Origin: a virus
IMG/VR virus record: IMGVR_UViG_3300031972_002613
Location: 1 to 25,344 of that record
Strand: one strand, 5' to 3'
DNA length: 25,344 nucleotides
Positions 2,767 to 23,723 of this stretch are shown here, in pieces. How positions within the stretch are numbered: position 1 is the first letter of the stretch; the number at the start of each line of letters is the position of its first letter. The position numbers and the translations under genes are program-made. Under the pieces are notes generated by a model that was not told the origin of the DNA, ran no database searches, and saw only the letters and a list, made by a program, of their open reading frames with translations.

Positions 2767-3848
2767 TGGCCATACAAGAATTTAACATAGGCAAAATCAT
2801 ACAAAACTCCTCAAAAAGGATTAGAACAAACTATAATAGCGATCTAGACTATAAGCTTTTCTTAGATACAGACTTGTTTCCACTTATTCCAAGAGACACC
2901 AAGCTTATTGGGTTTAGTCAAGATTCTTTTGTTTTAGAAGAAGTAGCCGAACAATACAAAAAGTTTACAGATCTAATAACAAGAAAGATGCTTCAAAAGA
3001 AAGTTGGTTTTGAGTTTTATAACTTTACAAAAAAACCAGACTTTTCCAACAATAACTTATTAGAAGCATACGCAAACAATCTAAATACTTATTATGGTTT
3101 ACTTGTAGGTTACATAGACGGAAGAAACATAAAGATAAGAAACGTCACAGATTTTTATAATACCTTTCTAGACTATATTGGAAGATACTCTAGCATCTTG
3201 CCCTTGACTTTTTACAACTTAAACTTTAAGAAACGGTTGTATTTCGAAAACACCGGATTATCAATAGTTATAAAGCAAAAAGGCGCTGGTGACCCAACAG
3301 GGATCTTTGCAGACTTTCTTAGGAACACCAGAAACACCAACGATTATGTAAAGATAGCAAATTTACAAGGTTTTGAGGTTGATCTTGCAAATCCTTATCG
3401 CTTGGTGTATAATCCATTCAGAAAGATAAATAACGTTGACATCAAGCAGTTCTATACTGACAACTTTTTTAACTATTTTGATTTAGAGTTTAGTTATCTT
3501 GACATGATGGTCACAACAATGTATAATCAATATAACAAAGATCGTTTTGCGAACCACTTCTCTGACAAGGACAAGATCTATTTTCCAAACGAGATGTGTA
3601 AGAACCAAATAAGAACAATAAAAGAAAACATCAATAAAGAAGGAACATTAACAAAAGAGCAAAAACTAAAACTTTACTTTTTTGCGCTTCTATCGGAAAC
3701 AAACCAAAACGAGATGCCAAATAAAGACAAGGTATTTCATAACGCTTTGGCCGTGGCGAATTCTCTTGACATGCCGTCCGCAATGCGCTATACTGTAGCC
3801 CAAGTCAGGAGATCGTCCAAGACCACCACGCTCACCCCGGTTTTTTAA
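2766..3848 (+). CDS. Putative phage structural protein, unknown
   Basis: 360 aa with a GTG start overlapping the previous stop by 1 bp. A GGGGGAGG stretch at about 2749-2756 is a strong ribosome binding site and supports this start. The protein is rich in Asn, Tyr, Phe and Lys, with no signal peptide, membrane segment or catalytic motif. Aromatic-rich blocks (YRLVYNPFRKINN, FFNYFDLEFSYLDMMV) and a basic, Thr-rich C-terminus (RRSSKTTTLTPVF) are visible. Being coupled to the large upstream protein suggests a virion or virion-assembly role. I do not recognise the family. Its stop overlaps the polymerase start (TAATG). Confidence 0.6.
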   Translation: MAIQEFNIGKIIQNSSKRIRTNYNSDLDYKLFLDTDLFPLIPRDTKLIGFSQDSFVLEEVAEQYKKFTDLITRKMLQKKVGFEFYNFTKKPDFSNNNLLEAYANNLNTYYGLLVGYIDGRNIKIRNVTDFYNTFLDYIGRYSSILPLTFYNLNFKKRLYFENTGLSIVIKQKGAGDPTGIFADFLRNTRNTNDYVKIANLQGFEVDLANPYRLVYNPFRKINNVDIKQFYTDNFFNYFDLEFSYLDMMVTTMYNQYNKDRFANHFSDKDKIYFPNEMCKNQIRTIKENINKEGTLTKEQKLKLYFFALLSETNQNEMPNKDKVFHNALAVANSLDMPSAMRYTVAQVRRSSKTTTLTPVF

Positions 3849-5032
3849 TGTTCCAAACCCTTGATACGAAAAACAAATGCCACGCTGTCTATGAAGACGG
3901 CGTTTTTCATTTTGACGGTGCTGAAACAAAAGCCGCAAAAACTTGGTCTTATCACCACGCAACCGACAAAGAAGATCTGCAGGTTGGAAACATTTGGGCT
4001 GGTGGTCGTTCTCTAAAAGAATGCTGCCCAGCCGATGTTATGCCAGAATACTTGGAGATTGAGAAAAAACTCCAAGCTTTTAACATGGCTTTTGGCGCCG
4101 TCGACTTTAACGTCCAAGAATGGTGCGTATACGACTTTATGCCGCTTTCTTTCCTGATTGATCTTTGCGAGGTAAAAAATAAAATAACTGAAAACGTTCT
4201 GCAAAACTATACCAAGCCAAAATCTTATGACCACCTATTGGAAGTACACCGACTTCTCTCTGAGATGAACCACAAGCAAGTTCTTTTTGACTTTGATGTG
4301 GCGGCACAAGTAAGCACGACAAAGGCCTTACAAGGCAAACTACGAAGCCTGAGAGGCACAAACAAGTGGGTTCACTACGATCCTTACGGCACAATCACAG
4401 GAAGGTTGAGCACAAAGCCAGATACGTTCCCGATTCTCAACCTCCCGCACGAGTTCAAAACAGCCGTGCGCCCACATAACGATCTTTTTGTTGAGTTGGA
4501 CTATAACGCAGCTGAACTTCGCACAATGTTGGCCTTGGCTGGTAAAGAACAACCCGAAGAAGACATCCACGAATGGAACATGAAAAACGTGTTCTCTCGC
4601 ATTGAGGATCGTGATCAAGCAAAGAAGAAAGCTTTCCAGTGGCTTTACGGCAAAACCGCCGCAAACAAAACTTTGGAAAAGGTTTACGATAAAGATAAGA
4701 TCAAAACTGACTGGTTTCATCACGATTTTGTCAAGACACCATTTGGTCGTGCGATTGAGTGTGATGACGACCACGCAATCAATTATGTTATTCAATCAAC
4801 AACCGCAGACGTTGTTTATGAGAACGCAAGCAAAGTCAATGAACTTCTGAAAGGACGCCAAACAAACTTAGCCTTTATCGTGCACGACTGTATTATTTTG
4901 GACCTAAGCAAAAAAGATCTTGACTTGATCGACGATTTGGTGCATACTTTCTCTAACACTCGCTTTGGAGACTTTCGAACGACCCTCAAGGCAGGTAAGA
5001 CGCTCGGCAGCATGCAGGAGATTGCTTTATGA
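3848..5032 (+). CDS. Compact family A DNA polymerase, no exonuclease domain
   Basis: 394 aa with the C-terminal palm/fingers of Pol I-type polymerases. TGRLS lies at 184-188. Motif A is DYNAAELR (218-225; catalytic Asp218). Motif B matches R-x3-K-x3-F-x3-YG exactly (RDQAKKKAFQWLYG, 255-268). Motif C is VHDC (345-348; catalytic Asp347), with Cys where most family members have Glu. The FGR...AINYVIQSTTADVV stretch between B and C matches the family. The N-terminal ~140 residues lack recognisable 3'-5' exonuclease motifs, and the fingers between motifs B and C look shortened relative to E. coli Pol I. ATG overlaps the upstream stop; the 3' end overlaps the next gene by ATGA. The window also encodes a DnaE-type polymerase, so this enzyme probably has a specialised rather than main replicative job (inference). 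Confidence 0.88.
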   Translation: MFQTLDTKNKCHAVYEDGVFHFDGAETKAAKTWSYHHATDKEDLQVGNIWAGGRSLKECCPADVMPEYLEIEKKLQAFNMAFGAVDFNVQEWCVYDFMPLSFLIDLCEVKNKITENVLQNYTKPKSYDHLLEVHRLLSEMNHKQVLFDFDVAAQVSTTKALQGKLRSLRGTNKWVHYDPYGTITGRLSTKPDTFPILNLPHEFKTAVRPHNDLFVELDYNAAELRTMLALAGKEQPEEDIHEWNMKNVFSRIEDRDQAKKKAFQWLYGKTAANKTLEKVYDKDKIKTDWFHHDFVKTPFGRAIECDDDHAINYVIQSTTADVVYENASKVNELLKGRQTNLAFIVHDCIILDLSKKDLDLIDDLVHTFSNTRFGDFRTTLKAGKTLGSMQEIAL

Positions 5033-9658: not shown

Positions 9659-11047
9659 ATGATTAAAGATACAACATTTGGTAATAAAGACGGGTTCGAG
9701 AAGTTTGGTAAGTCTTTCCAAGAAAAACTTTGCAAACTTATTATGTTCGATCGTCCTTTTGCCGATCAGATGGAAGAAGTCCTGGACGTGTCTTTTTTCG
9801 AGAACAAAGCTTTACAAGAACTAACAAAGCTTATTTTCAGACATAGAACAGAATACAGTGTTCATCCGTCCGAAGAAACCTTAGAGACTTTGGTAAGAAC
9901 TGAAATCACAGATCTACCAGAGTCAGTCCAGGCAACGATTCGAAACTTTGTTGCAAAATCTATTGGAAACCAGATTGTAGCAGATTCTGACTACATTAAA
10001 AACCAAGCATTAGACTTTTGTAAGAAGCAGAAACTCCAAGAAGCTATTTTACACTCTATCTCTTTGATCAAAAGCTCTTCGTTTGACGAGGTAAAAGGAG
10101 TTATCGACGAAGCACTAAAGCTTGGAATGGACAATGACTTTGGTCACGACTTTATCAAGGACTTTGATGCTCGGTATGTAGAAAAGCCTAGACACCCCGT
10201 TACAACAGGATGGTCGCTTATTGACGATCTAACACAAGGTGGCCACGGCATTGGAGAACTAGGTGTAGTTATCGCACCAACAGGAGCAGGAAAATCAATG
10301 GCTTTGGCTCACCTAGGAGCACAAGCTGCGAAAGCCGGCAAAACTGTTGTCCACTATACATTAGAACTGTCTGATAAGGTGGTAGCACAAAGATACGATT
10401 CTTGTATTTCCGAGATCAAACTAAATGAACTAAGAAATAGAAAAGAAGATGTTTTAGACTCAATCAAAGAGATCGAGGGCGCCATTATTGTAAAGGAGTA
10501 TCCAACAAAATCAGCATCTGTTGCGACTCTCGACCGCCACTTGGAAAAGCTAGTATCAAGAGGTATTCCCATTGGAACAATCGTTGTTGATTATGCCGAT
10601 CTTTTGAAGTCGGTAACTAGTTATAAGGACAAAAGATTTGAACTTGAATCTATCTATGAAAATCTACGAGGTCTAGCACAAAAATACGCTTGTCCTATTT
10701 GGACTGCATCTCAGACAAACCGTTCTGGTGTCAATGCTGAAATCGTAACGATGGAAGCTATTTCAGAAGCATTTAGTAAGTGCTTTGTTGCTGATTTTAT
10801 TTGCTCGCTCTCTAGGACAATCGATGACCGAAACAACAATACCGGCCGTTTATATATCGCAAAAAACAGAAACGGTGCGGATGGGCTAGTTTTCCCTTTA
10901 TATATGGACACCAGCAACGTTAAGATTCGAGTCTTAGAGCCAACAAATGAATCAATCGAAGACCTAAAAAAGAATACAGCAAAAAGACAGATGAATCATC
11001 TGCGAGAACAATACAAACAAATGAAAACTGAAGGAGAAAATAGTTAA
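9659..11047 (+). CDS. Replicative DNA helicase, DnaB/gp41 type
   Basis: 462 aa. A helical N-terminal domain (about 1-165) is followed by a RecA-like motor. Walker A is APTGAGKS (206-213). The catalytic Glu is in YTLELSDK (Glu236). Walker B is IVVDYADLL (308-316; Asp311). The DnaB motif H3 is WTASQTNRSG (348-357, Gln352), and the H4-like segment is AKNRNGADG. It would unwind the fork as a hexamer. ATG follows the exonuclease stop by 2 nt with AAGGA upstream; the stop overlaps the nrdJ ATG. No primase is visible in this window. Confidence 0.92.
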   Translation: MIKDTTFGNKDGFEKFGKSFQEKLCKLIMFDRPFADQMEEVLDVSFFENKALQELTKLIFRHRTEYSVHPSEETLETLVRTEITDLPESVQATIRNFVAKSIGNQIVADSDYIKNQALDFCKKQKLQEAILHSISLIKSSSFDEVKGVIDEALKLGMDNDFGHDFIKDFDARYVEKPRHPVTTGWSLIDDLTQGGHGIGELGVVIAPTGAGKSMALAHLGAQAAKAGKTVVHYTLELSDKVVAQRYDSCISEIKLNELRNRKEDVLDSIKEIEGAIIVKEYPTKSASVATLDRHLEKLVSRGIPIGTIVVDYADLLKSVTSYKDKRFELESIYENLRGLAQKYACPIWTASQTNRSGVNAEIVTMEAISEAFSKCFVADFICSLSRTIDDRNNNTGRLYIAKNRNGADGLVFPLYMDTSNVKIRVLEPTNESIEDLKKNTAKRQMNHLREQYKQMKTEGENS

Positions 11048-12294
11048 TGGAACTTGCTACAAAGATTTTATCAGACATCACGGTGCACATGAAGTACGCC
11101 AAGTACGACCCGGTCCAGCAGCGTAGGGAAAGTTGGGACGAGTTGGTAAATAGAAATATGTATTTGCATGTTAAGAAGTATCCAGATCTAGCCGGGGAGA
11201 TCGTCAATGTTTATGAGGACTATGTAAGGCCTAGAAAAGTTCTTCCTTCAATGCGCTCAATGCAGTTTGCTGGAAAGCCTATTGAGGTTGCGCCAAACAG
11301 GGTATACAACTGCGCCTATCTGCCTATTGACCATTCAGCAGCTTTTTCCGAGACAATGTTTCTTCTTCTTGGAGGAACAGGTGTGGGATACTCTGTACAG
11401 ACTCACCACGTTGAAAAGCTTCCTGAGATCCGCCGGCCAAATGAAAAAAGAACCCGTCGTTTTCTTATTGGCGACTCAATTGAAGGCTGGGCTGATTCTG
11501 TAAAAGCACTAATCTTATCTTACTATCGTGGTACTTCTAGGATTCGTTTTGACTTTTCAGACATCCGACCAAAAGGTGCTCGTCTAGTTACATCAGGAGG
11601 CAAAGCGCCAGGACCACAGCCTTTGCGTGAGTGTCTTGTAAAGCTTGAAGGTATTCTTTCACAGAAGGAAGATGGTGATAAGCTTGACCCAATCGAAGTC
11701 CATGACATGATTTGCCATATTGCGGATGCTGTCCTTGCGGGAGGCATTCGCCGTGCCGCTCTTATCGCTCTTTTCTCAGCTGATGATGATGAAATGATTG
11801 CTTCAAAGGTTGGAGACTGGTGGGAAGCAAACCCACACCGTGGTCGAGCAAACAACTCAGCTGTAATCCTACGCCACAAAGTTGATAAAGATTATTTTCT
11901 TTCACTTTGGGATCGAATCCAAAAGTCAGGTTCAGGCGAGCCCGGTATCTACCTATCAAACGATAAAGACTGGGGGACAAACCCTTGTTGTGTCGACGGT
12001 GAAACTCTCGTTATGACAGATAAGGGTGAGATGACAATGGCTCAGTTGGTTTCTGAATACCAGAACGGAAGTAACATCAAAGTCGTCTCATTTAGTGAGG
12101 ACACCGGAGATCTTGAGTTCAGATCTGTCGAAGCAGCCGCAATGACAAGAGAGGACGCCAGTGTGATCAAGGTTGAGACAGAAGATGGTCAGACAATCAC
12201 TCTAACCCCGGATCACAGAGTATACACTGAGAATCGTGGTTATGTTGAGGCTGCCGACTTGACAGAGGATGACATTCTACTCTACATCGAATAA
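11047..12294 (+). CDS. nrdJ: NrdJ N-terminal half fused to split N-intein
   Basis: 415 aa: residues 1-314 are the N-extein of an adenosylcobalamin-dependent (class II) ribonucleotide reductase, and 315-415 are an N-intein. Extein features are VYNCAY (Cys89, equivalent to the redox Cys119 of the Lactobacillus leichmannii enzyme), LLGGTGVGYSVQ, and the end GTNPC, whose Cys314 corresponds to the thiyl-radical Cys408. The intein begins CVDGETLVMT (block A) and contains TPDH (block B, Thr73/His76 of the intein). It ends in an acidic tail (LTEDDILLYIE), then TAA. There is no C-terminal intein part or C-extein in this gene; both lie at 13225. The reductase can only become whole by trans-splicing. 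Confidence 0.92.
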   Translation: MELATKILSDITVHMKYAKYDPVQQRRESWDELVNRNMYLHVKKYPDLAGEIVNVYEDYVRPRKVLPSMRSMQFAGKPIEVAPNRVYNCAYLPIDHSAAFSETMFLLLGGTGVGYSVQTHHVEKLPEIRRPNEKRTRRFLIGDSIEGWADSVKALILSYYRGTSRIRFDFSDIRPKGARLVTSGGKAPGPQPLRECLVKLEGILSQKEDGDKLDPIEVHDMICHIADAVLAGGIRRAALIALFSADDDEMIASKVGDWWEANPHRGRANNSAVILRHKVDKDYFLSLWDRIQKSGSGEPGIYLSNDKDWGTNPCCVDGETLVMTDKGEMTMAQLVSEYQNGSNIKVVSFSEDTGDLEFRSVEAAAMTREDASVIKVETEDGQTITLTPDHRVYTENRGYVEAADLTEDDILLYIE

Positions 12295-12390
12295 AACTGG
12301 AAAAGTCAAGTTCTTTATTTAGTTTATTTTTTTATTAGATCTTGGCCAACTACAAGCATAAAAAAGATCGAAAATAAAGGCTGTCGTTTT

Positions 12391-12448
12391 TTTGGCGGGC
12401 ACACTATTTATAAGTATGAAAACAATACAAGGGTCTGTGCCCGCCAAA
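12391..12448 (+). promoter_or_regulatory. Hairpin enclosing the endonuclease start codon
   Basis: TTTGGCGGGCACA (12391-12403) is perfectly complementary to TGTGCCCGCCAAA (12436-12448): a 13-bp stem with a 32-nt loop (12404-12435) containing the ATG at 12416. The 3' arm is inside the coding region (reads ...SVPAK...). No good ribosome binding site lies just before the ATG. T-runs precede rather than follow the stem, so it is not a terminator. Probably it limits endonuclease translation (inference). Confidence 0.6.
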
Positions 12449-13279
12449 GAAATACTAGTTGCGATTGAGAGGATTTACCTGGATTTAGATCGAGGCAAAC
12501 AAAAGATAATACCTGAAGAGTTAGAGGGCGAGTATCAAACTTATGCCTCGAAGAGATACAAAGAGATGGGCAACTCGTCAAGATCATCGAATAAAAGATC
12601 TTTCTTGATTGAGAATGCCCACAGGATCCATCCAAATGAGTTTAGACTGGCTAGAGATTACATTTCTAATCTTTATGGAGATGGATACGGGCTCAAACTA
12701 ATAGGGAAACATCTGAACTTAGGTCCAACGAGGGTCCGGACTCTTTTTCGCATTTTAGGCATCACTATAAACAAAGGTCGAAATATTGTTTATGACAAAA
12801 CAAGAGAGATAAGGAGCGAAAACCTAAAAGAAAAGTATGTTAGTAGAACTGGGTGGTTTAGAAGTCTAGAAAGACGAACAAACAAAACATCTCGTGGGAT
12901 CCAGGGCTACTACTACAACCAATCGAGAGGCAAGTATGTCTGGCTACGAAGCACTTATGAATACATTTATGCTAAGTGGCTAGATAGGAACAAGATCGAT
13001 TGGGATGTCGAGCAACAGACATACCAGTTAGAGGGCACCACATACCGACCAGATTTCTTTATCTATGAAAACGATTCTCTAGTAAAGATTGTTGAGATAA
13101 AGGGATACTGGGCGACCGGGGTGAGGAAGACTCGTGAACTATCAGAAACACTAAACATAACGGTCGTGCTAGTAACAGACATAAAACCGTATTACAAACA
13201 AAGTTACAAAAAGGAGTTACAAGAATGGAAACACAAGAGAACACTCTACAGCGAAGAACGCTCAAGAGGACAAAAATAA
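12416..13279 (+). CDS. Homing endonuclease, PD-(D/E)xK/Vsr-like, inside the split intein
   Basis: 287 aa from the ATG at 12416; a TTG at 12392, in the hairpin stem, is an alternative with AAGG 11 nt upstream. Residues about 84-117 (LYGDGYGLKLIGKHLNLGPTR...) look like a helix-turn-helix. The C-terminal domain carries a restriction-fold nuclease signature: Glu182 in the STYEYIYAKWLD helix, RPDFFI (Asp213) and VEIKGYW (Glu227, Lys229). It stands between the two intein halves in a different frame, and its last 55 bp overlap the C-intein gene. Its likely job is cleavage of intein-less nrdJ alleles so that the whole insertion is copied. Related metagenomic split-intein endonucleases were described as Vsr-like; subfamily assignment here is by motif only. 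Confidence 0.78.
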   Translation: MKTIQGSVPAKEILVAIERIYLDLDRGKQKIIPEELEGEYQTYASKRYKEMGNSSRSSNKRSFLIENAHRIHPNEFRLARDYISNLYGDGYGLKLIGKHLNLGPTRVRTLFRILGITINKGRNIVYDKTREIRSENLKEKYVSRTGWFRSLERRTNKTSRGIQGYYYNQSRGKYVWLRSTYEYIYAKWLDRNKIDWDVEQQTYQLEGTTYRPDFFIYENDSLVKIVEIKGYWATGVRKTRELSETLNITVVLVTDIKPYYKQSYKKELQEWKHKRTLYSEERSRGQK

Positions 13280-14289
13280 AAAGAATCTCAGTAGAGACAA
13301 ACAGAGATGTATACGACATCCAAGTTGAGGCAAATGAGAACTTCTTTGCCAACAACGTGCTGGTTCACAACTGTGAAATCGCACTTCGCCCTTATCAGTT
13401 CTGTAATCTAACTGAGATCAACGCTTCAGATCTTGACTCCCAAGAAGAGTATGAAGCTCGTTGCCGTGCTGCTGCTTTCCTGGGCACACTCCAAGCCGGC
13501 TATACAGACTTTCACTACTTGCGTGATGTTTGGCGAAGAACAACAGAGAAAGACGCACTTATTGGCGTATCAATGACCGGCATCGCATCAGGAGCAGTAT
13601 TGGATCTGGATATGGAAGCGGGCGCAAGATCAGTAAAAGAAGAAAATAAAAGAGTTGCCGATCTTATTGGTATTCGACAAGCCGCAAGAACCACTTGTGT
13701 CAAACCGGCTGGTACAACTTCACTAACTCTTGGAACATCATCAGGTATTCATGCTTGGCACAGTGATTATTACATTCGTCGGCTTCGTTTGGGCAAGAAT
13801 GAAGCAATTTATTCTTATCTCTCGGAGAACCACCCAGAGTTAGTTGAGGATGAATACTTCCGACCACACGACACAGCAGTTGTCTCAGTTCCTCAAAAGG
13901 CGCCCGAAGGGGCTATTTATCGAACAGAAAGCGCCCTATCACTACTCAAGCGCATTGAACGAGTTTCACGTGATTGGGTAAAGTCCGGACACCGAAAGGG
14001 AGAGAACACACACAACGTTTCAGCGACTGTCTCAGTTCGTGAAAGTGAATGGGATGATGTTGGTGAATGGATGTGGGAAAACAGGAATGTCTATAACGGC
14101 CTCTCTGTTCTTCCCTATTCTGATCACACACACGTTCAGCTACCTTTCCAAGAGTGTTCAAAAGAAGAATACAATGCTTTGCTTGGAGCGCTAAAAGATG
14201 TTGATCTTACAAAGATCATTGAAACAGAAGACAATACAGACTTAGCAGGTGAACTAGCTTGCGTCGCCGGAAGCTGCGAAGTAAAATAA
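13225..14289 (+). CDS. nrdJ: Split C-intein fused to NrdJ C-terminal half
   Basis: 354 aa: residues 1-49 are the C-intein and 50-354 the C-extein. AAGGAG (13211-13216) lies 8 nt before the ATG, inside the endonuclease gene. The C-intein has a basic start (LQRRTLKRTKIKR), matching the acidic N-intein tail, then block F DVYDIQVEANENFFA and block G VLVHN, ending in His48-Asn49 before the +1 Cys. The extein begins CEIALRPYQFCNL: Glu316 and Cys325 of the spliced protein match catalytic Glu410 and redox Cys419. The C-terminal ACVAGSC (Cys611/Cys616) matches the re-reducing CxxxxC pair. The spliced enzyme would be 619 aa, shorter than the ~739 aa of L. leichmannii. It supplies deoxynucleotides and needs cobalamin, not oxygen. 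Confidence 0.92.
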   Translation: METQENTLQRRTLKRTKIKRISVETNRDVYDIQVEANENFFANNVLVHNCEIALRPYQFCNLTEINASDLDSQEEYEARCRAAAFLGTLQAGYTDFHYLRDVWRRTTEKDALIGVSMTGIASGAVLDLDMEAGARSVKEENKRVADLIGIRQAARTTCVKPAGTTSLTLGTSSGIHAWHSDYYIRRLRLGKNEAIYSYLSENHPELVEDEYFRPHDTAVVSVPQKAPEGAIYRTESALSLLKRIERVSRDWVKSGHRKGENTHNVSATVSVRESEWDDVGEWMWENRNVYNGLSVLPYSDHTHVQLPFQECSKEEYNALLGALKDVDLTKIIETEDNTDLAGELACVAGSCEVK

Positions 14290-14335
14290 CGATCGCTTTA
14301 CTTGGTCAGAACAAAAGTAACGATCGCTTTACTTG
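14287..14335 (+). repeat. 18-bp tandem direct repeat upstream of a promoter
   Basis: TAACGATCGCTTTACTTG occurs at 14287-14304 (starting with the nrdJ stop codon) and again, identically, at 14318-14335. The spacing is 31 bp start to start, about three helical turns. The second copy ends 23 bp before the -35 box of the promoter at 14358. The placement suggests paired protein-binding sites on one face of the DNA. Confidence 0.75.
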
Positions 14336-14357
14336 ACCGGAAGGTGGTAAAAAATGC

Positions 14358-14386
14358 TTGACTTCTCGCCGGGTGCGTGCTAGAAT
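14358..14386 (+). promoter_or_regulatory. Sigma70-type promoter after nrdJ
   Basis: TTGACT (14358-14363), 17-bp spacer, TAGAAT (14381-14386), in the 163-bp gap after nrdJ and within the GCTTGACT context shared by other promoters here. The leader to the next ATG is about 60 nt and contains GTTGAGTGG...CTGCTCAC, which could fold weakly. A GGAGG box (14443-14447) precedes the gene at 14453. Confidence 0.75.
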
Positions 14387-14452
14387 GATATCTGTTGAGT
14401 GGAGGAGCGCCCGTCGCCCCTGCTCACAAACTAACATAAATGGAGGACAACC

Positions 14453-14722
14453 ATGAAAGAAGAAGAAAAGACAGAAAAGATCCGAGAGTTCATTCAAACT
14501 TTTGATGCTATTGAGCAAGAAATGGAACCCTACAAGGACGCAAAGCGAGATCTTCGTGCGAACTACAAGGAAAACGAATGGCTTACCGGCGATGAGATGC
14601 GGCTAGCAGTAAGGGCCTATCGTATGCTCAAGAAGGATGAAGATCTAGAAGAACTACAAGAAATGTATAGCAAGCTTTTGACTGCTATCTCAACAAAGCG
14701 AGGTTATTCAGATGTATCTTAA
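14453..14722 (+). CDS. Small helical protein, GapR/DUF2312-like
   Basis: 89 aa, strongly charged and all-helical by composition. The layout IREFIQTFDAIEQEMEPYKD, then a second helix through YKENEWLTGDEMRLAVRAYR, then DLEELQEMYSKLL is similar in order and length to the GapR family of nucleoid-associated proteins, in which an 'IE.LE.E' helix is followed by 'R.i.rlR' and 'E.....Y...L'. The likeness is by eye. If real, it would be a DNA-binding dimer tracking overtwisted DNA. A generic coiled-coil protein is the alternative. It has GGAGG 5 nt before the ATG and is first gene after the 14358 promoter. Its end overlaps the next gene by 11 bp. Confidence 0.45.
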   Translation: MKEEEKTEKIREFIQTFDAIEQEMEPYKDAKRDLRANYKENEWLTGDEMRLAVRAYRMLKKDEDLEELQEMYSKLLTAISTKRGYSDVS

Positions 14723-15008
14723 CCCTTGCAATCGGTTCCTGCACATTTCATTGATTGAGCCTGAGCCTGAAAAAGAAACCAAAGAAGCAAAAGTGCTACT
14801 TCCAGATGATTATGTAAAAGAAGTAAAGCAAAGATACCGAACAGCTAGCCTTCTTGGTGTTGGAGAGCAATGCACAGTGTTTTCCTCTAGCGACGTTGGT
14901 AGTGTTTTAGTCGTAGTCGATACAACTATGGTGGAAAGCTTTGTCGATCTAAGCGGAAAAGAGCAGTTTTTCATTCTAGAAAGTCACATTTTAGGCACTT
15001 ACCGATAA
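14712..15008 (+). CDS. GroES/gp31-like co-chaperonin
   Basis: 98 aa, the usual GroES length. The N-terminal FLHISLIEPEPEKETKEAKV then LLPDDY is like the GroES start (strand, mobile loop, 'LP'). TASLLGVGEQCTV matches the 'G.VvavG.g' strand, and VGSVLVVVD the 'vGD.V' strand. The end GKEQFFILESHILGTY matches 'geeylvl.e.dilav'. No large chaperonin is seen in the window, so it would cap the host GroEL, as T4 gp31 does for capsid protein folding. The roof-loop region is short, as in phage versions. Overlaps the previous gene by 11 bp. Confidence 0.6.
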   Translation: MYLNPCNRFLHISLIEPEPEKETKEAKVLLPDDYVKEVKQRYRTASLLGVGEQCTVFSSSDVGSVLVVVDTTMVESFVDLSGKEQFFILESHILGTYR

Positions 15009-15017
15009 AGGAGATAA

Positions 15018-15362
15018 ATGAGAAAACTAATAGTATTGAGTACCTTCTTGCTGATGCTGATGCTTTCCCGTAAAGCATCAGCCGATTGCATTTGCTATGG
15101 CAGGGACTGGGAGACGGGTTATGAGTATGCAACCTCGTGGTGTTTAGAAGATGTTGATCCTTGCCGAAACACTCCTCCGATGTATCACTATCTAAATGGA
15201 GGAGAATGGGAGCCTATTCCACACGGAGAATGGCCAGCTGGCTTATCAGAGCTAGTTTGTGAGGAACTCATTTGCAGCGCTTGTGGAGAAGTTTCTTATG
15301 ACTGCTCAGATGTAAGACACTCTATTCGCCGGCGCTATGTTGGACCAGAGGATGGTTGCTAA
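15018..15362 (+). CDS. Secreted cysteine-rich small protein
   Basis: 114 aa. MRKLIVLSTFLLMLMLSRKASA (1-22) is a classical signal peptide with an AxA-type cleavage site; there is no lipobox. The mature part holds nine cysteines (DCIC, WC, PC, VC, IC, AC, DC and the C-terminal Cys), so it is probably disulphide-bonded in the periplasm. No known domain recognised. AAAGGAG before the ATG supports the start. The stop overlaps the thyX ATG by 1 bp. The role is unknown; modification of the host envelope or superinfection exclusion is a guess. Confidence 0.65.
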   Translation: MRKLIVLSTFLLMLMLSRKASADCICYGRDWETGYEYATSWCLEDVDPCRNTPPMYHYLNGGEWEPIPHGEWPAGLSELVCEELICSACGEVSYDCSDVRHSIRRRYVGPEDGC

Positions 15363-16066
15363 TGGAAATCAAAGATGAAACAATCTATTTGTATGGAGAT
15401 GAGATCGGAAGATGCGACTTTATACAATCATGGGGAAATGACATTATGGCTGTCAATGCGGCCAGAGCCTCATTTGGCGTTGAGAAAGAAGAGCTAGATG
15501 AAAAAGATAAAAAACTTATCAACTTTCTAGTGAAGCATAAACATACGTCAGTGTTTGAACACGGCGGAATCACTTTTAGATGTGTTGTGCCTTTGTTTGT
15601 GCGTTCTCAACATCATCGTCATAGGACTTGGTCTTATAACGAGATCTCAAGGCGATACACAAACGTCAACCTGCAGTTCTATGAGCCAGAAAGCTTTAGA
15701 ACCCAGCATAAAAGCAACAGACAGGCATCAAACGATAAAGATCTAATCAATCCAGAGTTGCAACATTCCTTCCGAAGCCGAAAAATTAGCGATCACGTTC
15801 GGGTGCATCACAGTCAGAGTTTACAGCTTTATGATACAATGATTGGAGCAGGAGTTTGTCGAGAACAAGCAAGAGGGGTACTACCCCAGAACCTCTACAC
15901 AACTTACTATGCATCGGCTAATGTCTCAAACATTATAAAGTTCATTGGGCTTAGAGACAAGCCGGAAGCACAACAAGAGATTCGGGTACTAGCACAAGCA
16001 ATGAAAAAGTTCTTAGAAAGAGAGTTCCCACACACAGAAGAAGCAATGGGGGCTGATTATGATTGA
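15362..16066 (+). CDS. thyX: Flavin-dependent thymidylate synthase
   Basis: 234 aa from the ATG at 15362, which overlaps the preceding stop (TAATG); a TTG at 15356 is in frame but less likely. The ThyX signature RHRxxSxNExSxRY is complete: RHRTWSYNEISRRY (86-99). HTSVFEHGGITF (61-72) and GVCREQARGVLPQNLYTT are the conserved FAD/dUMP-site segments, with the catalytic region intact. It makes dTMP from dUMP using FAD and methylenetetrahydrofolate, and pairs logically with the dCMP-deaminase-like gene (7860) and class II RNR (11047/13225). Confidence 0.95.
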   Translation: MEIKDETIYLYGDEIGRCDFIQSWGNDIMAVNAARASFGVEKEELDEKDKKLINFLVKHKHTSVFEHGGITFRCVVPLFVRSQHHRHRTWSYNEISRRYTNVNLQFYEPESFRTQHKSNRQASNDKDLINPELQHSFRSRKISDHVRVHHSQSLQLYDTMIGAGVCREQARGVLPQNLYTTYYASANVSNIIKFIGLRDKPEAQQEIRVLAQAMKKFLEREFPHTEEAMGADYD

Positions 16067-20279: not shown

Positions 20280-23200
20280 ATGAAAGAAAGAATTGAATCA
20301 AAACTTAAATTTGTAAACTTACACGGGCACTCTTGTGTTGGATCTCCTTTTGACGCTCTAGGATATCCGGATGAGCACATGGATTTCAGCTACAACAACG
20401 GGTGTGATGCTGTTGCTCTAACCGATCATGGGAACATGAATGGCTTTTCTCATCAATACCTTCATTGGAAGAAGATGAAGAACGAAGGAAAAGAGTTCAA
20501 GGCCGTGTATGGGGTTGAGGCTTACTTCCATCCTTCGATCAAAGACTGGAAAGAAGAAAAGCTTCGTATCGAAGAAGACAAGAAGCAAGCAAAGAAACTG
20601 GCCAAGGCTGAAGGAATGTCTATTGAAGATGAGGGATCGACTCGTTCAAGAAACTCTCCAATCAATCACCGACGCCACCTTGTGCTCTTGGCGCAGAACC
20701 AGACCGGTCTAAACAATCTTTTCTCGCTTGTCTCTAAGTCACACCAAGGGGACAACTATTATCGATATCCCAGAATGGATTACGATCTTCTTCGTGAGCA
20801 CTCCGAAGGGGTTATTGTAACTTCTGCTTGTCTTGGCGGATACATTGCTAAGATTATGTGGCAGATGTTAGATCAATCTGATGAGGAGATCATCGCAGAA
20901 GCGGTAAGCCAATCCAAAGAAATGCTTGAGATCTTTGGAGAGCGATTCTTTCTAGAACTACAGTGGAACTCTATCCCAGAGCAGCACAGACTAAACAAGA
21001 TTATTATTGCTGTGGCTCAAGAACTAAACATTGAGCTTGTATCAACTGCGGATGCACACTATCCCAGCCCAGAGCTTTGGAAGGACCGCTTGCTTTACAG
21101 GAACTTGGGTTGGATGAACAGAAAGTCCAATCCAGACTATGAGATCAGCATCCCTGAGACCTTAGAAGAAGTTGGGTATGAGTTGTATCCTAAGAATGGC
21201 GACCAGATGTGGCAAGCATACAAAGACTATTCTGCTGAAGTTGGAGAAACTTACGATGATGATCTAGTCCGTGGTAGCATTGAAAGAACTCACTGGATCG
21301 CACACGAACTGATTTCTGACTTTGAGCCGGATGCTGAGGTTCGCCTTCCTGACTTTGTTGTGCCGGAAAGTGAAACAGCTGACAGCCAGCTGGTGAAACT
21401 AGCGATTGAAGGAATGACAGAGCTTGGCCTCGCTGATAATGATGAGTATGTTGCAAGGATCCGTGAAGAGATTGAAGTAATCAAAGAACGAGGCTTTGCA
21501 AAATACTTTCTTACAATGAAGGCAATTGCTGATAGAGCCAACGAGATGATGCTTTCAGGTCCAGGTCGAGGTTCAGCAGCGGGCTCTCTTTTGGCTTATG
21601 TGCTAAAGATTACACAGATCGATCCAATCAAACACGGGCTTTTGTTCTCTCGTTTTATGACGAAAGACGCAACAGACTATCCTGACATTGACTTTGATGT
21701 TTCACGCAGTATGGAAATCAAAGAAGTGCTGGCAGAAGAGTGGGGTGAGGATTCAGTTGTGCCGATCTCAAACTTCAACACTCTCAAGCTAAGATCTCTA
21801 ATCAAAGATGTCTCAAAGTTTTATGGTATTCCCTTCACAGAGGTAAACAAAGTAACTTCTGTTATGATCAAGGAAGCCACGCCACTAGCAAAGGCAGCGC
21901 ACGGTATGACTGCCGGTATGTATGTACCAACTTATGAAGAAACAGTTCTCTATTCCGAAAGCTTACAGAGTTTCCTAACAAAGTATCCTGAAGTTGGTGA
22001 GCGCCTCAGTGCTTTGTTAGGACAAGTCCGTTCTCTTTCTAGACATGCCGGTGGTGTTGTTGTTGGAGACGATCTAAAGAAGTGGATGCCCCTTATTGCA
22101 TCTGGTGGAGTTGTACAAACCCCGTGGTCAGAAGGGCAAAACGTAAGACACTTGGAGCCACTTGGCTTTATTAAGTTTGATGTTCTTGGACTAACAACAT
22201 TAGCGATTATGGAAGGTGCGATTTATCACATTCTTCGTCGGCATCACGGGATCGAAGAACCAACTTTCGATCAGATCCGAGACTTCTATGATAAAAACCT
22301 TCATCCAGACAAGATCGATCTAGACGATGAAGAAGTTTATAAAGACATTTTCCAAGCAGGAAAGTGGGCCGGCATCTTCCAGTTCGCCAATGAAGGAGCA
22401 CAAAAGCTTTGCTCAAACTCAAAAGTAGAGTCCATTATTGATCTTTCCGCTGTGACTTCCATTTATCGACCTGGGCCTCTTTCGGCTGGTGTTGATAAAG
22501 ATTACATCGCAGCAAAGGAAAGCCCTCAATACATCAAGTACGACCATCCAATCATTCGCACGATCTTGGAGCCAACATACGGCTTTATGATTTTCCAAGA
22601 GCAGATTGCTCAGTTGGCTGCTGAACTTGGAAAGGGCCTTACTCTTGATGATGGAAACAAGCTTAGAAAGTTGCTTACAAAGAAGGGCCTTTCTGAAAAG
22701 AAGATGAAGGAGAAAGCAGACATTAAACAAAAGTTCTTGGAGGGCTGTTATGAAAAGGGTTACAAGGGCGGCGAAGATCTTTGGAGAAAGTTTGAGTACT
22801 TCTCTGGTTACGGCTTTAACAAATCTCACGCTGTTTGTTATTCTGTTATTAGCTATCAGTGTGCTTGGCTTTATAAGTATTTTCCATCCGAATGGACCGC
22901 TGCGTTTTTGGATAACGAACCGGATGCGAAGAAGGAAGCAGCGATTGCGACAGCGAAAGGAGCAGGATTTAATGTAGAGAAGATCAGCATCAACTCTTCC
23001 GGTCGTTGCTGGGAAATCTCTCAAGATGGGCAAACTCTTTATCAGCCACTATCTTCCATCAAGGGGCTGGGTGACGCTGCTATCAATGAGATTATGGCTC
23101 ATCGCCCATTTCACAAAGTAGAAGACCTTATCTTTTCAGAAGAGATCTCATACTCCAAACTAAATAAGAAAGCGCTTGATGTTCTTTGTCGGGCTCAGGC

Positions 23201-23723
23201 TCTAAACTCTTTGGTTGATGAAAGGTTTACAGGGCTGAAACACTTTTGGTCTGCTGTATGTGTCGATCGCCCAAAGATCTATAAGAAGATCCAAAAGTCA
23301 CACGATAAACTAGCCGAGAACATCAAAGAGTATGCTCCCGAAAAGGACTTCTCAGATGTTGAAAGGATTGAGTATCTCTCAGATCTGACCGGGGTGTTCC
23401 CAATGTCGCTAGTTGTTGATGATAACTTGCTCCAAGATCTTCATCATCGAGGTGTGCCCCCTATCTCTGAGTTCGATCCTGAGCTTTTGGTTTGCTGGTT
23501 CATTCCTCGCAAAGTAACTGAGCGTAAGACAAAGAAAGGGAAAACATACTGGATTGTTGATGTTACAGACAGCAACAGTGAGATGATCGCAATCAAATGC
23601 TGGGCTGTCCAAAAGAATGATGTTGTTCATCTAAACAGGCCCTACGCAGCAAAGCTTGATCATAGCCCACAATGGGGCTTCTCAACTCGCTCAATCAAAC
23701 ATCGCTTCAAGTTGCTTTCCTGA
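20280..23723 (+). CDS. dnaE: DNA polymerase III alpha-like replicative polymerase
   Basis: 1147 aa, close to full DnaE length. The PHP domain starts FVNLHGHSCVGSPFDALGYP (His15/His17) with ALTDHGNMNG and YGVEAYF. The palm has GPGRGSAAGSLLAYVL, then YPDIDFD (catalytic Asp pair about Asp471/Asp473) and FIKFDVLGL (Asp634). Fingers and HhH follow: IFQEQIAQLAAELG, LRKLLTKKG and YGFNKSHAVCYSVISYQCAWL. A C-terminal OB-type segment (VTERKTKKGKTYWIVDVTD) is present. The frame is unbroken, with no intein. AAGGAG precedes the ATG. It is probably the phage's main replicase, working with the helicase at 9659 and SSB at 6085. Clamp and loader genes are not in the window, so it may use host or distant phage ones. 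Confidence 0.95.
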   Translation: MKERIESKLKFVNLHGHSCVGSPFDALGYPDEHMDFSYNNGCDAVALTDHGNMNGFSHQYLHWKKMKNEGKEFKAVYGVEAYFHPSIKDWKEEKLRIEEDKKQAKKLAKAEGMSIEDEGSTRSRNSPINHRRHLVLLAQNQTGLNNLFSLVSKSHQGDNYYRYPRMDYDLLREHSEGVIVTSACLGGYIAKIMWQMLDQSDEEIIAEAVSQSKEMLEIFGERFFLELQWNSIPEQHRLNKIIIAVAQELNIELVSTADAHYPSPELWKDRLLYRNLGWMNRKSNPDYEISIPETLEEVGYELYPKNGDQMWQAYKDYSAEVGETYDDDLVRGSIERTHWIAHELISDFEPDAEVRLPDFVVPESETADSQLVKLAIEGMTELGLADNDEYVARIREEIEVIKERGFAKYFLTMKAIADRANEMMLSGPGRGSAAGSLLAYVLKITQIDPIKHGLLFSRFMTKDATDYPDIDFDVSRSMEIKEVLAEEWGEDSVVPISNFNTLKLRSLIKDVSKFYGIPFTEVNKVTSVMIKEATPLAKAAHGMTAGMYVPTYEETVLYSESLQSFLTKYPEVGERLSALLGQVRSLSRHAGGVVVGDDLKKWMPLIASGGVVQTPWSEGQNVRHLEPLGFIKFDVLGLTTLAIMEGAIYHILRRHHGIEEPTFDQIRDFYDKNLHPDKIDLDDEEVYKDIFQAGKWAGIFQFANEGAQKLCSNSKVESIIDLSAVTSIYRPGPLSAGVDKDYIAAKESPQYIKYDHPIIRTILEPTYGFMIFQEQIAQLAAELGKGLTLDDGNKLRKLLTKKGLSEKKMKEKADIKQKFLEGCYEKGYKGGEDLWRKFEYFSGYGFNKSHAVCYSVISYQCAWLYKYFPSEWTAAFLDNEPDAKKEAAIATAKGAGFNVEKISINSSGRCWEISQDGQTLYQPLSSIKGLGDAAINEIMAHRPFHKVEDLIFSEEISYSKLNKKALDVLCRAQALNSLVDERFTGLKHFWSAVCVDRPKIYKKIQKSHDKLAENIKEYAPEKDFSDVERIEYLSDLTGVFPMSLVVDDNLLQDLHHRGVPPISEFDPELLVCWFIPRKVTERKTKKGKTYWIVDVTDSNSEMIAIKCWAVQKNDVVHLNRPYAAKLDHSPQWGFSTRSIKHRFKLLS

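What the first reader, a model, noticed from the sequence alone, without database searches (positions are those of the whole stretch)
11047..14289. nrdJ fractured by a split intein with an endonuclease gene between the halves
The RNR is encoded by two genes that end and begin with intein halves. Deleting 1383 bp restores a perfect NPC-CEIALRPYQFC active site in frame. The insertion falls right after the thiyl-radical Cys (Cys408 equivalent), so the enzyme is dead unless the halves trans-splice. Fractured genes with split inteins are known from metagenomic phages (NrdJ-1, gp41-1), which I recall with Ser at +1. Here the +1 residue is Cys, which gives a distinct splice chemistry. The acidic N-half and basic C-half tails fit fast natural split inteins.
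Basis: partly seen in the sequence, partly recalled or inferred. Interest (0 to 1): 0.85.

Follow-up and report, generated by a model that had tools for sequence, protein, structure and literature searches.

The report
Mobile split intein breaking phage nrdJ
A phage's only visible gene for making DNA building blocks is cut in two by a mobile element that should stitch the two protein halves back together, a known kind of arrangement whose close relatives here show clear signs of jumping between phages together with a DNA-cutting enzyme gene.

Summary
The class II ribonucleotide reductase gene nrdJ is two genes ending and beginning in split-intein halves (101 aa and 49 aa), with a nuclease gene between. 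Removing exactly 1383 bp restores a 619-aa enzyme with all five catalytic cysteines. The break falls directly after the thiyl-radical cysteine. The best reading is a trans-splicing split intein of the NrdJ-1 family carried by a homing cassette. IMG/VR holds a locus 98% identical to NrdJ-1, with the same site and a nuclease of the same family, so this is a new member of a known kind ('fractured genes'). The +1 Cys is not special chemistry: 76/76 intein-less relatives have Cys there, and 35 of 47 loci with this nuclease have Cys (11 have Ser). New here: the nuclease is PD-(D/E)XK (T7 endonuclease I/TnsA-like), not EDxHD/Vsr, and nearly always sits in a split intein in RNR genes. The cassette is 97-98% identical between phages whose flanking nrdJ DNA is only 69-76% identical. 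A 97%-matching empty allele exists. A hairpin with a late-promoter-like loop precedes the nuclease, like T4 I-TevI. Splicing, cleavage and timing remain untested.

The parts
11047..11988 (+). nrdJ N-extein, 314 aa, ends ...TNPC; its last residue is the thiyl-radical Cys (Cys408 equivalent)
   Evidence: phrog_367 RNR E 5e-63 and TIGR02505 E 5e-38; aligns to uninterrupted NrdJ homologues up to residue 314
11989..12294 (+). N-intein, 101 aa, C1VDGETL...TPDH(73-76)...VYTENRGYV...DDILLYIE + TAA
   Evidence: TIGR01445 E 5e-15; NrdJ-1 PDB 8ubs E 5e-18; catalytic Cys1 and block-B TxxH present, tyrosines equivalent to NrdJ-1 Tyr83 and Tyr89 present
12386..12453 (+). RNA hairpin ahead of the nuclease: perfect 13-bp core TTTGGCGGGCACA (12391-12403) / TGTGCCCGCCAAA (12436-12448), loop 12404-12435
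   Evidence: inverted-repeat score 41 against a maximum of 24 in 15 shuffles; -31.5 kcal/mol, z -4.4, 0 of 200 shuffles as low; other stem sequences with the same shape in relatives
12404..12418 (+). CTATTTATAAGTATG, T4-late-promoter-like sequence inside the hairpin loop
   Evidence: CTATTTA is invariant among 7 relatives; TATTTATA found 29 times upstream of ORFs against 4 expected in related contigs. Promoter function inferred
12416..13279 (+). PD-(D/E)XK nuclease gene, putative homing endonuclease (start codon uncertain: ATG 12416 or GTG 12437)
   Evidence: 45-member alignment with invariant R178, S179, E182, E199, P212-D213, E227-x-K229; 8 of 45 members match Pfam Phage_endo_I, best E 4e-10; AlphaFold pLDDT 87, fold hits TnsA, XisH, Bax1
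13225..13371 (+). C-intein, 49 aa, ends VLVHN; ATG overlaps the nuclease 3' end by 55 bp, AGGAG just upstream
   Evidence: TIGR01443 E 2e-6; 79% identical to L087 and L096 C-inteins over the aligned stretch, 48% to NrdJ-1; overlap found in 42 of 47 lineages
13372..14289 (+). nrdJ C-extein, 305 aa, starts C(+1)EIALRPYQFC, ends with the ACVAGSC redox pair
   Evidence: phrog_367 E 2e-53, TIGR02505 E 3e-30; catalytic Cys 89, 314, 325, 611, 616 in the joined protein

Best explanation
A naturally split class 1 intein of the NrdJ-1 family interrupts the phage nrdJ at the catalytic site, and N-intein, PD-(D/E)XK nuclease and C-intein form one mobile cassette. Inferred mechanism: both nrdJ halves are made with the early/middle replication genes. 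The intein halves associate through their charged tails. Cys1, then Cys+1, then Asn49 (preceded by His48) carry out trans-splicing, giving the 619-aa NrdJ. On early mRNA the hairpin hides the nuclease start, while the C-half uses its own ribosome site inside the nuclease 3' end. Late transcription starting in the loop frees the nuclease, which cuts empty nrdJ alleles of co-infecting phages so that repair copies in the whole cassette. Shown by sequence: anatomy, homology, precise insertion, sporadic presence, recent transfer of the whole cassette, purifying selection, hairpin. Not shown: splicing, cleavage, timing.
For: Anatomy and families. NrdJ-1 kinship: N-intein E 5e-18 to 8ubs; an IMG/VR locus 98% identical to NrdJ-1 (L177 = L156) has the same site and a nuclease of the same family. 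Intact enzyme: five catalytic Cys. No second nrdJ in 184-, 160- and 147-kb relatives. Mobility: in 92 NrdJ sequences the element needs at least 9 gains or losses. Empty L046 matches filled L108 at 97% in both flanks; cassettes L106 and L111 are 97.0% identical (L106 and L110 97.7%) with flanks about 69-76%. Selection: dN/dS 0.04-0.16 for the N-intein and 0.14-0.34 for the nuclease among L104, L106, L109 and L111. Hairpin; the T4 precedents I-TevI, segB and mobE are in PMC2988022.
Against: No experiment. The block-F His (His29 of NrdJ-1) is Glu in the window; 32 of 47 lineages keep His, and 11 others have Q, S, K, Y or N, so it may be dispensable or slow splicing. The nuclease start codon is uncertain: the ATG that follows the hairpin in several relatives is AAA in the window. 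The promoter-like loop is a weak motif, and exact TATAAATA lies on the opposite strand in the window. About half of the lineages, including NrdJ-1, have no hairpin above controls.
Confidence: 0.9

Rival explanations
1. The halves assemble without splicing, as in the genes-in-pieces NrdA of Aeromonas phage Aeh1 split by mobE.
For: Aeh1 NrdA works in pieces although no self-splicing intron is present (PMC3653736).
Against: Both intein halves are complete, and related copies are under purifying selection. The break separates Cys314 from Glu316 and Cys325 in the active site, and each half carries an intein tail at the break.
Confidence: 0.05
2. A decayed element: the intein or the nuclease is no longer active, and nrdJ is a dying gene.
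For: Block-F His replaced by Glu; the nuclease start codon seen in relatives is lost.
Against: All reading frames are open and the splice residues Cys1, TxxH, HN and +1 Cys are intact. The same allele is in three assemblies. Related cassettes are under purifying selection.
Confidence: 0.06
3. The interruption is removed at RNA level by a group I or II intron.
For: Phage RNR genes often carry group I introns (PMC3653736).
Against: No Rfam match at E up to 1 in 10000-15500. Intein domains flank the seam, and each half has its own stop or start and ribosome site.
Confidence: 0.01
4. The nuclease is not a homing enzyme but a resolvase-like repair or defence nuclease that merely hitch-hikes.
For: Nearest sequence family is T7 endonuclease I, a junction resolvase.
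Against: In all but three of 52 non-redundant loci it has a split-intein half beside it, and the C-exteins scanned (46 loci) match RNR families. It moves with the intein.
Confidence: 0.08

Closest known systems
NrdJ-1 split intein (marine metagenome; PDB 8UBS)
   Same: Homologous intein halves, same insertion point NPC| in nrdJ, nuclease of the same family in between at the NrdJ-1-like locus L156/L177; equivalents of accelerator Tyr83, Tyr89 and His39 present (PMC13123727).
   Different: +1 is Cys, not Ser; N-intein 38% identical; block-F His is Glu; host nrdJ of another lineage; strong hairpin before the nuclease, not seen at the NrdJ-1 locus.
Fractured genes (Dassa et al. 2009)
   Same: DNA-synthesis gene of a phage broken by a split intein with a free-standing endonuclease gene inside.
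   Different: The family named in that work is EDxHD/Vsr (PMC12350094); the nuclease here has PD-(D/E)XK residues and no conserved His. The original paper is not held, so whether it also lists this family could not be checked.
T4 I-TevI, segB and Aeh1 mobE regulation
   Same: Hairpin over the start region of the endonuclease with a late-promoter-like sequence inside (PMC2988022).
   Different: Host element is a split intein; the downstream half-gene has a separate ribosome site.
I-Ssp6803I (PD-(D/E)xK homing endonuclease)
   Same: Same catalytic class (PMC3943268).
   Different: From a bacterial group I intron (own knowledge); not among the listed sequence or fold matches.

Membership tests
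Fractured gene with split intein | Conserved enzyme gene broken in two by matching split-intein halves | tested here: met
Fractured gene with split intein | Free-standing endonuclease gene between the halves | tested here: met
   12416-13279, PD-(D/E)XK nuclease
EDxHD/Vsr homing endonuclease | E-D-x-H-D catalytic residues | tested here: not met
   invariant residues are E182, D213, E227, K229, with no conserved His; no Vsr entry among the listed sequence or fold matches
NrdJ-1 intein family | Sequence homology and same insertion site | tested here: met
   E 5e-18; NPC| site in both
NrdJ-1 intein family | Ser at +1 | tested here: not met
   Cys; the residue follows the extein lineage
NrdJ-1 intein family | Fast trans-splicing | not testable with these tools
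   needs co-expression
Class 1 intein | Cys1, block-B TxxH, C-terminal HN, +1 C/S/T | tested here: met
Class 1 intein | Block-F His (common, not universal) | tested here: not met
   Glu in the window; also replaced in other lineages
Homing element | Precise presence/absence alleles and transfer into diverged hosts | tested here: met
   shown for sister cassettes, while the window's own cassette has empty nearest relatives (L003-L005)
Homing element | Nuclease cuts the empty allele | not testable with these tools
   needs a cleavage assay
Class II RNR (NrdJ) | Five catalytic cysteines, NPC-x-E active site | tested here: met
   Cys 89, 314, 325, 611, 616; Glu316
T4-type late control of a homing endonuclease | Hairpin covering the start region with a late promoter in the loop | tested here: inconclusive
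   hairpin strong; promoter only motif-like

The most novel reading that the evidence does not exclude
This nuclease is an undescribed homing endonuclease family (helix-rich N-terminus plus T7 endonuclease I/TnsA-like PD-(D/E)XK domain) specialised on the RNR active-site codons and travelling almost only inside split inteins. The cassette uses two insertion points one codon apart: after the thiyl Cys where the next native residue is Cys or Ser (NPC|C, NPC|S), and before it where that residue is nearly always Gly or Ala (NP|CGE, NP|CAE), making the thiyl-radical Cys itself the splicing nucleophile. Its timing is set by a hairpin/late-promoter switch, so that the enzyme is spliced early and the nuclease comes late.
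Probability: 0.45. Interest if true: 0.65.

Novelty: new member of a known kind. Interest (0 to 1): 0.45.

Why it matters
It places the biotechnologically used NrdJ-1 intein in its natural family: 47 distinct loci with both halves, 35 with +1 Cys and 11 with +1 Ser. These are matched, naturally evolved pairs for testing what sets +1 choice, speed and orthogonality. It also gives direct comparative evidence that a split intein and its nuclease move as one cassette, near-identical empty and filled alleles for a homing assay, and a testable regulatory switch.

Tried and rejected
Group I/II intron: no Rfam match. Distinct +1 Cys chemistry: rejected. EDxHD/Vsr nuclease: rejected. Intact second nrdJ: none in long relatives. 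Nuclease in bacterial and archaeal genomes: no relative found; in named phages only two weak matches. MAFFT alignment of the hairpins misplaces the 5' arms, so no formal covariation count was made; the claim rests on individual folds. dN/dS between the window and other cassettes is mostly saturated at synonymous sites, so only pairs among L104, L106, L109 and L111 are used. Dassa 2009 and two other papers looked up by id were not held, so statements about Dassa 2009 rest on papers that cite it and on memory.

Full report
OBSERVATION. The window is a 25,344-bp IMG/VR virus record. It carries phage replication genes around the site: UvsX-like recombinase, SSB, 5'-3' exonuclease, DnaB-type helicase, ThyX, PolA and PHP/PolIII alpha. 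The nrdJ N-half (11047-12294) ends in a 101-aa N-intein. The C-half (13225-14289) begins with a 49-aa C-intein. Between them is a 287-aa nuclease ORF (12416-13279). The gap between the exteins is 1383 bp, and joining them gives 619 aa reading TNPC|CEIALRPYQFC. All five cysteines expected of a class II RNR are there: Cys89, thiyl Cys314, Cys325 and the C-terminal pair Cys611/616 (assignment from knowledge of the L. leichmannii enzyme). Two further assemblies of the same virus have the same arrangement.

INTEIN. Curated intein models hit both halves. The only significant PDB match of the N-half is NrdJ-1, E 5e-18. Cys1, TPDH, VHN and the +1 Cys are present, and the tyrosines and histidine equivalent to the NrdJ-1 accelerator residues Tyr83, Tyr89 and His39 (PMC13123727) are conserved. 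The block-F His is Glu, a possible weakness.

NrdJ-1'S OWN LOCUS. Searching IMG/VR with the NrdJ-1 N-intein found one contig at 98% identity. The same contig was found independently with the nuclease profile, and it carries N-intein, nuclease of the same family and C-intein in the same order. The window is therefore a homologue of the NrdJ-1 fractured gene in all parts.

THE +1 RESIDUE. Of 76 close uninterrupted viral homologues, all 76 have Cys after NPC. Among 47 non-redundant fractured loci with both halves, +1 is Cys in 35 and Ser in 11, one unresolved. The +1 residue is what the host gene already had. Two insertion points exist: NPC|C or NPC|S, and NP|C. In the second group, read, the residue after the Cys is Gly in 14 of 20, Ala in 4, Val in 1 and Ser in 1. 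There the thiyl-radical Cys itself would be the splicing nucleophile (inference).

NUCLEASE. A 45-member alignment has invariant R178, S179, E182, E199, P212, D213, E227 and K229, the PD-(D/E)XK pattern, without a conserved His. Eight members match Pfam Phage_endo_I (best 4e-10), and the profile's best PDB match is T7 endonuclease I, E 0.003. The AlphaFold model (pLDDT 87) gives weak but consistent fold matches to TnsA, XisH and Bax1, all restriction-endonuclease-like, and none to Vsr in the list shown. The family linked to fractured genes in the literature is EDxHD/Vsr (PMC12350094), so this is another class. Of 98 loci with the nuclease (52 non-redundant), all but three of the 52 have a split-intein half beside it, and 47 have both. 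C-exteins of 46 loci were scanned and the family tallies are RNRs.

MOBILITY. On a tree of 92 NrdJ sequences the element's presence needs 10 changes, at least 9 forced by well-supported branches. Empty L046 and filled L108 agree at 97% in 700 bp on each side. Cassettes L106 and L110 are 97.7% identical, and L106 and L111 97.0%, while their flanking nrdJ DNA is only 69-76% identical; L104 and L106 share 90.7% over the cassette and 70-72% in the flanks. The unit that moves runs from N-intein to C-intein. The window's own nearest NrdJ relatives, L003-L005, are empty. Between cassettes dN/dS is 0.04-0.16 in the N-intein and 0.14-0.34 in the nuclease.

CONTROL REGION. Directly before the nuclease lies an inverted repeat with a 13-bp perfect core around CTATTTATAAGTATG (score 41 against at most 24 in shuffles; z -4.4). 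Relatives have different stem sequences that still pair, with z from -3.6 to -8.9 in the twelve folded. In 24 of 48 loci the repeat beats all shuffles; the NrdJ-1 locus does not. TATTTATA is about sevenfold enriched upstream of ORFs in related contigs, partly because nuclease copies are included. T4 uses this layout for I-TevI, segB and mobE: a hairpin hides the ribosome site on early RNA and a late promoter inside frees it (PMC2988022). The C-half has its own AGGAG and overlaps the nuclease end by 55 bp, an overlap seen in 42 of 47 loci. Early splicing and late nuclease is the simplest reading, but it is inference.

ALTERNATIVES. Non-covalent assembly, decay, RNA splicing and a non-homing nuclease were weighed (see rivals). 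None is favoured. Long relatives of 184, 160 and 147 kb show no second nrdJ or other PF02867 RNR, so there the fractured gene appears to be the only one; those records may be incomplete.

VERDICT. The locus is real, well explained and of a known kind. What it adds is the natural family and mobility of the NrdJ-1-type element, the nuclease class, the one-codon shift of the insertion point and the regulatory hairpin.

Noticed in passing
L100:3096-7443 (also L101): nrdJ broken into three genes by two split inteins: PD-(D/E)XK nuclease at NPC|SEI and an HNH-like ORF at a second site (VKPSG|...VVHN|TVSQ, +1 Thr). Extra N-intein matches downstream in L121, L126, L135-L137 and L145-L147 suggest more such cases.
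   Followed up: partly
L016:1087-3882 and L018: At the same NPC|CEI site these phages carry a contiguous intein with an HNH-like stretch, in one open frame: the site was colonised by a different intein type.
   Followed up: partly
L006:2571-3545, L176: Split intein at the same site with a shorter N-terminus and a long C-terminal extension of the nuclease, only the catalytic core shared.
   Followed up: no
window 3848-5032 and 20280-23723: The phage encodes a short PolA-type polymerase (394 aa) and a PHP-domain PolIII alpha (1147 aa), an odd pairing for a phage with UvsX and gp32-like proteins.
   Followed up: no
G006:C1:59670-59810 (contig of L119): A 47-aa extra copy of the nrdJ C-terminus lies next to the fractured gene, possibly a remnant of recombination.
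   Followed up: no
L083:3067: The gene downstream in the second assembly of the same virus is preceded by a terminator-like hairpin and CTATTTATAGTGC, the same motif as in the nuclease hairpin loop, supporting a late promoter.
   Followed up: partly
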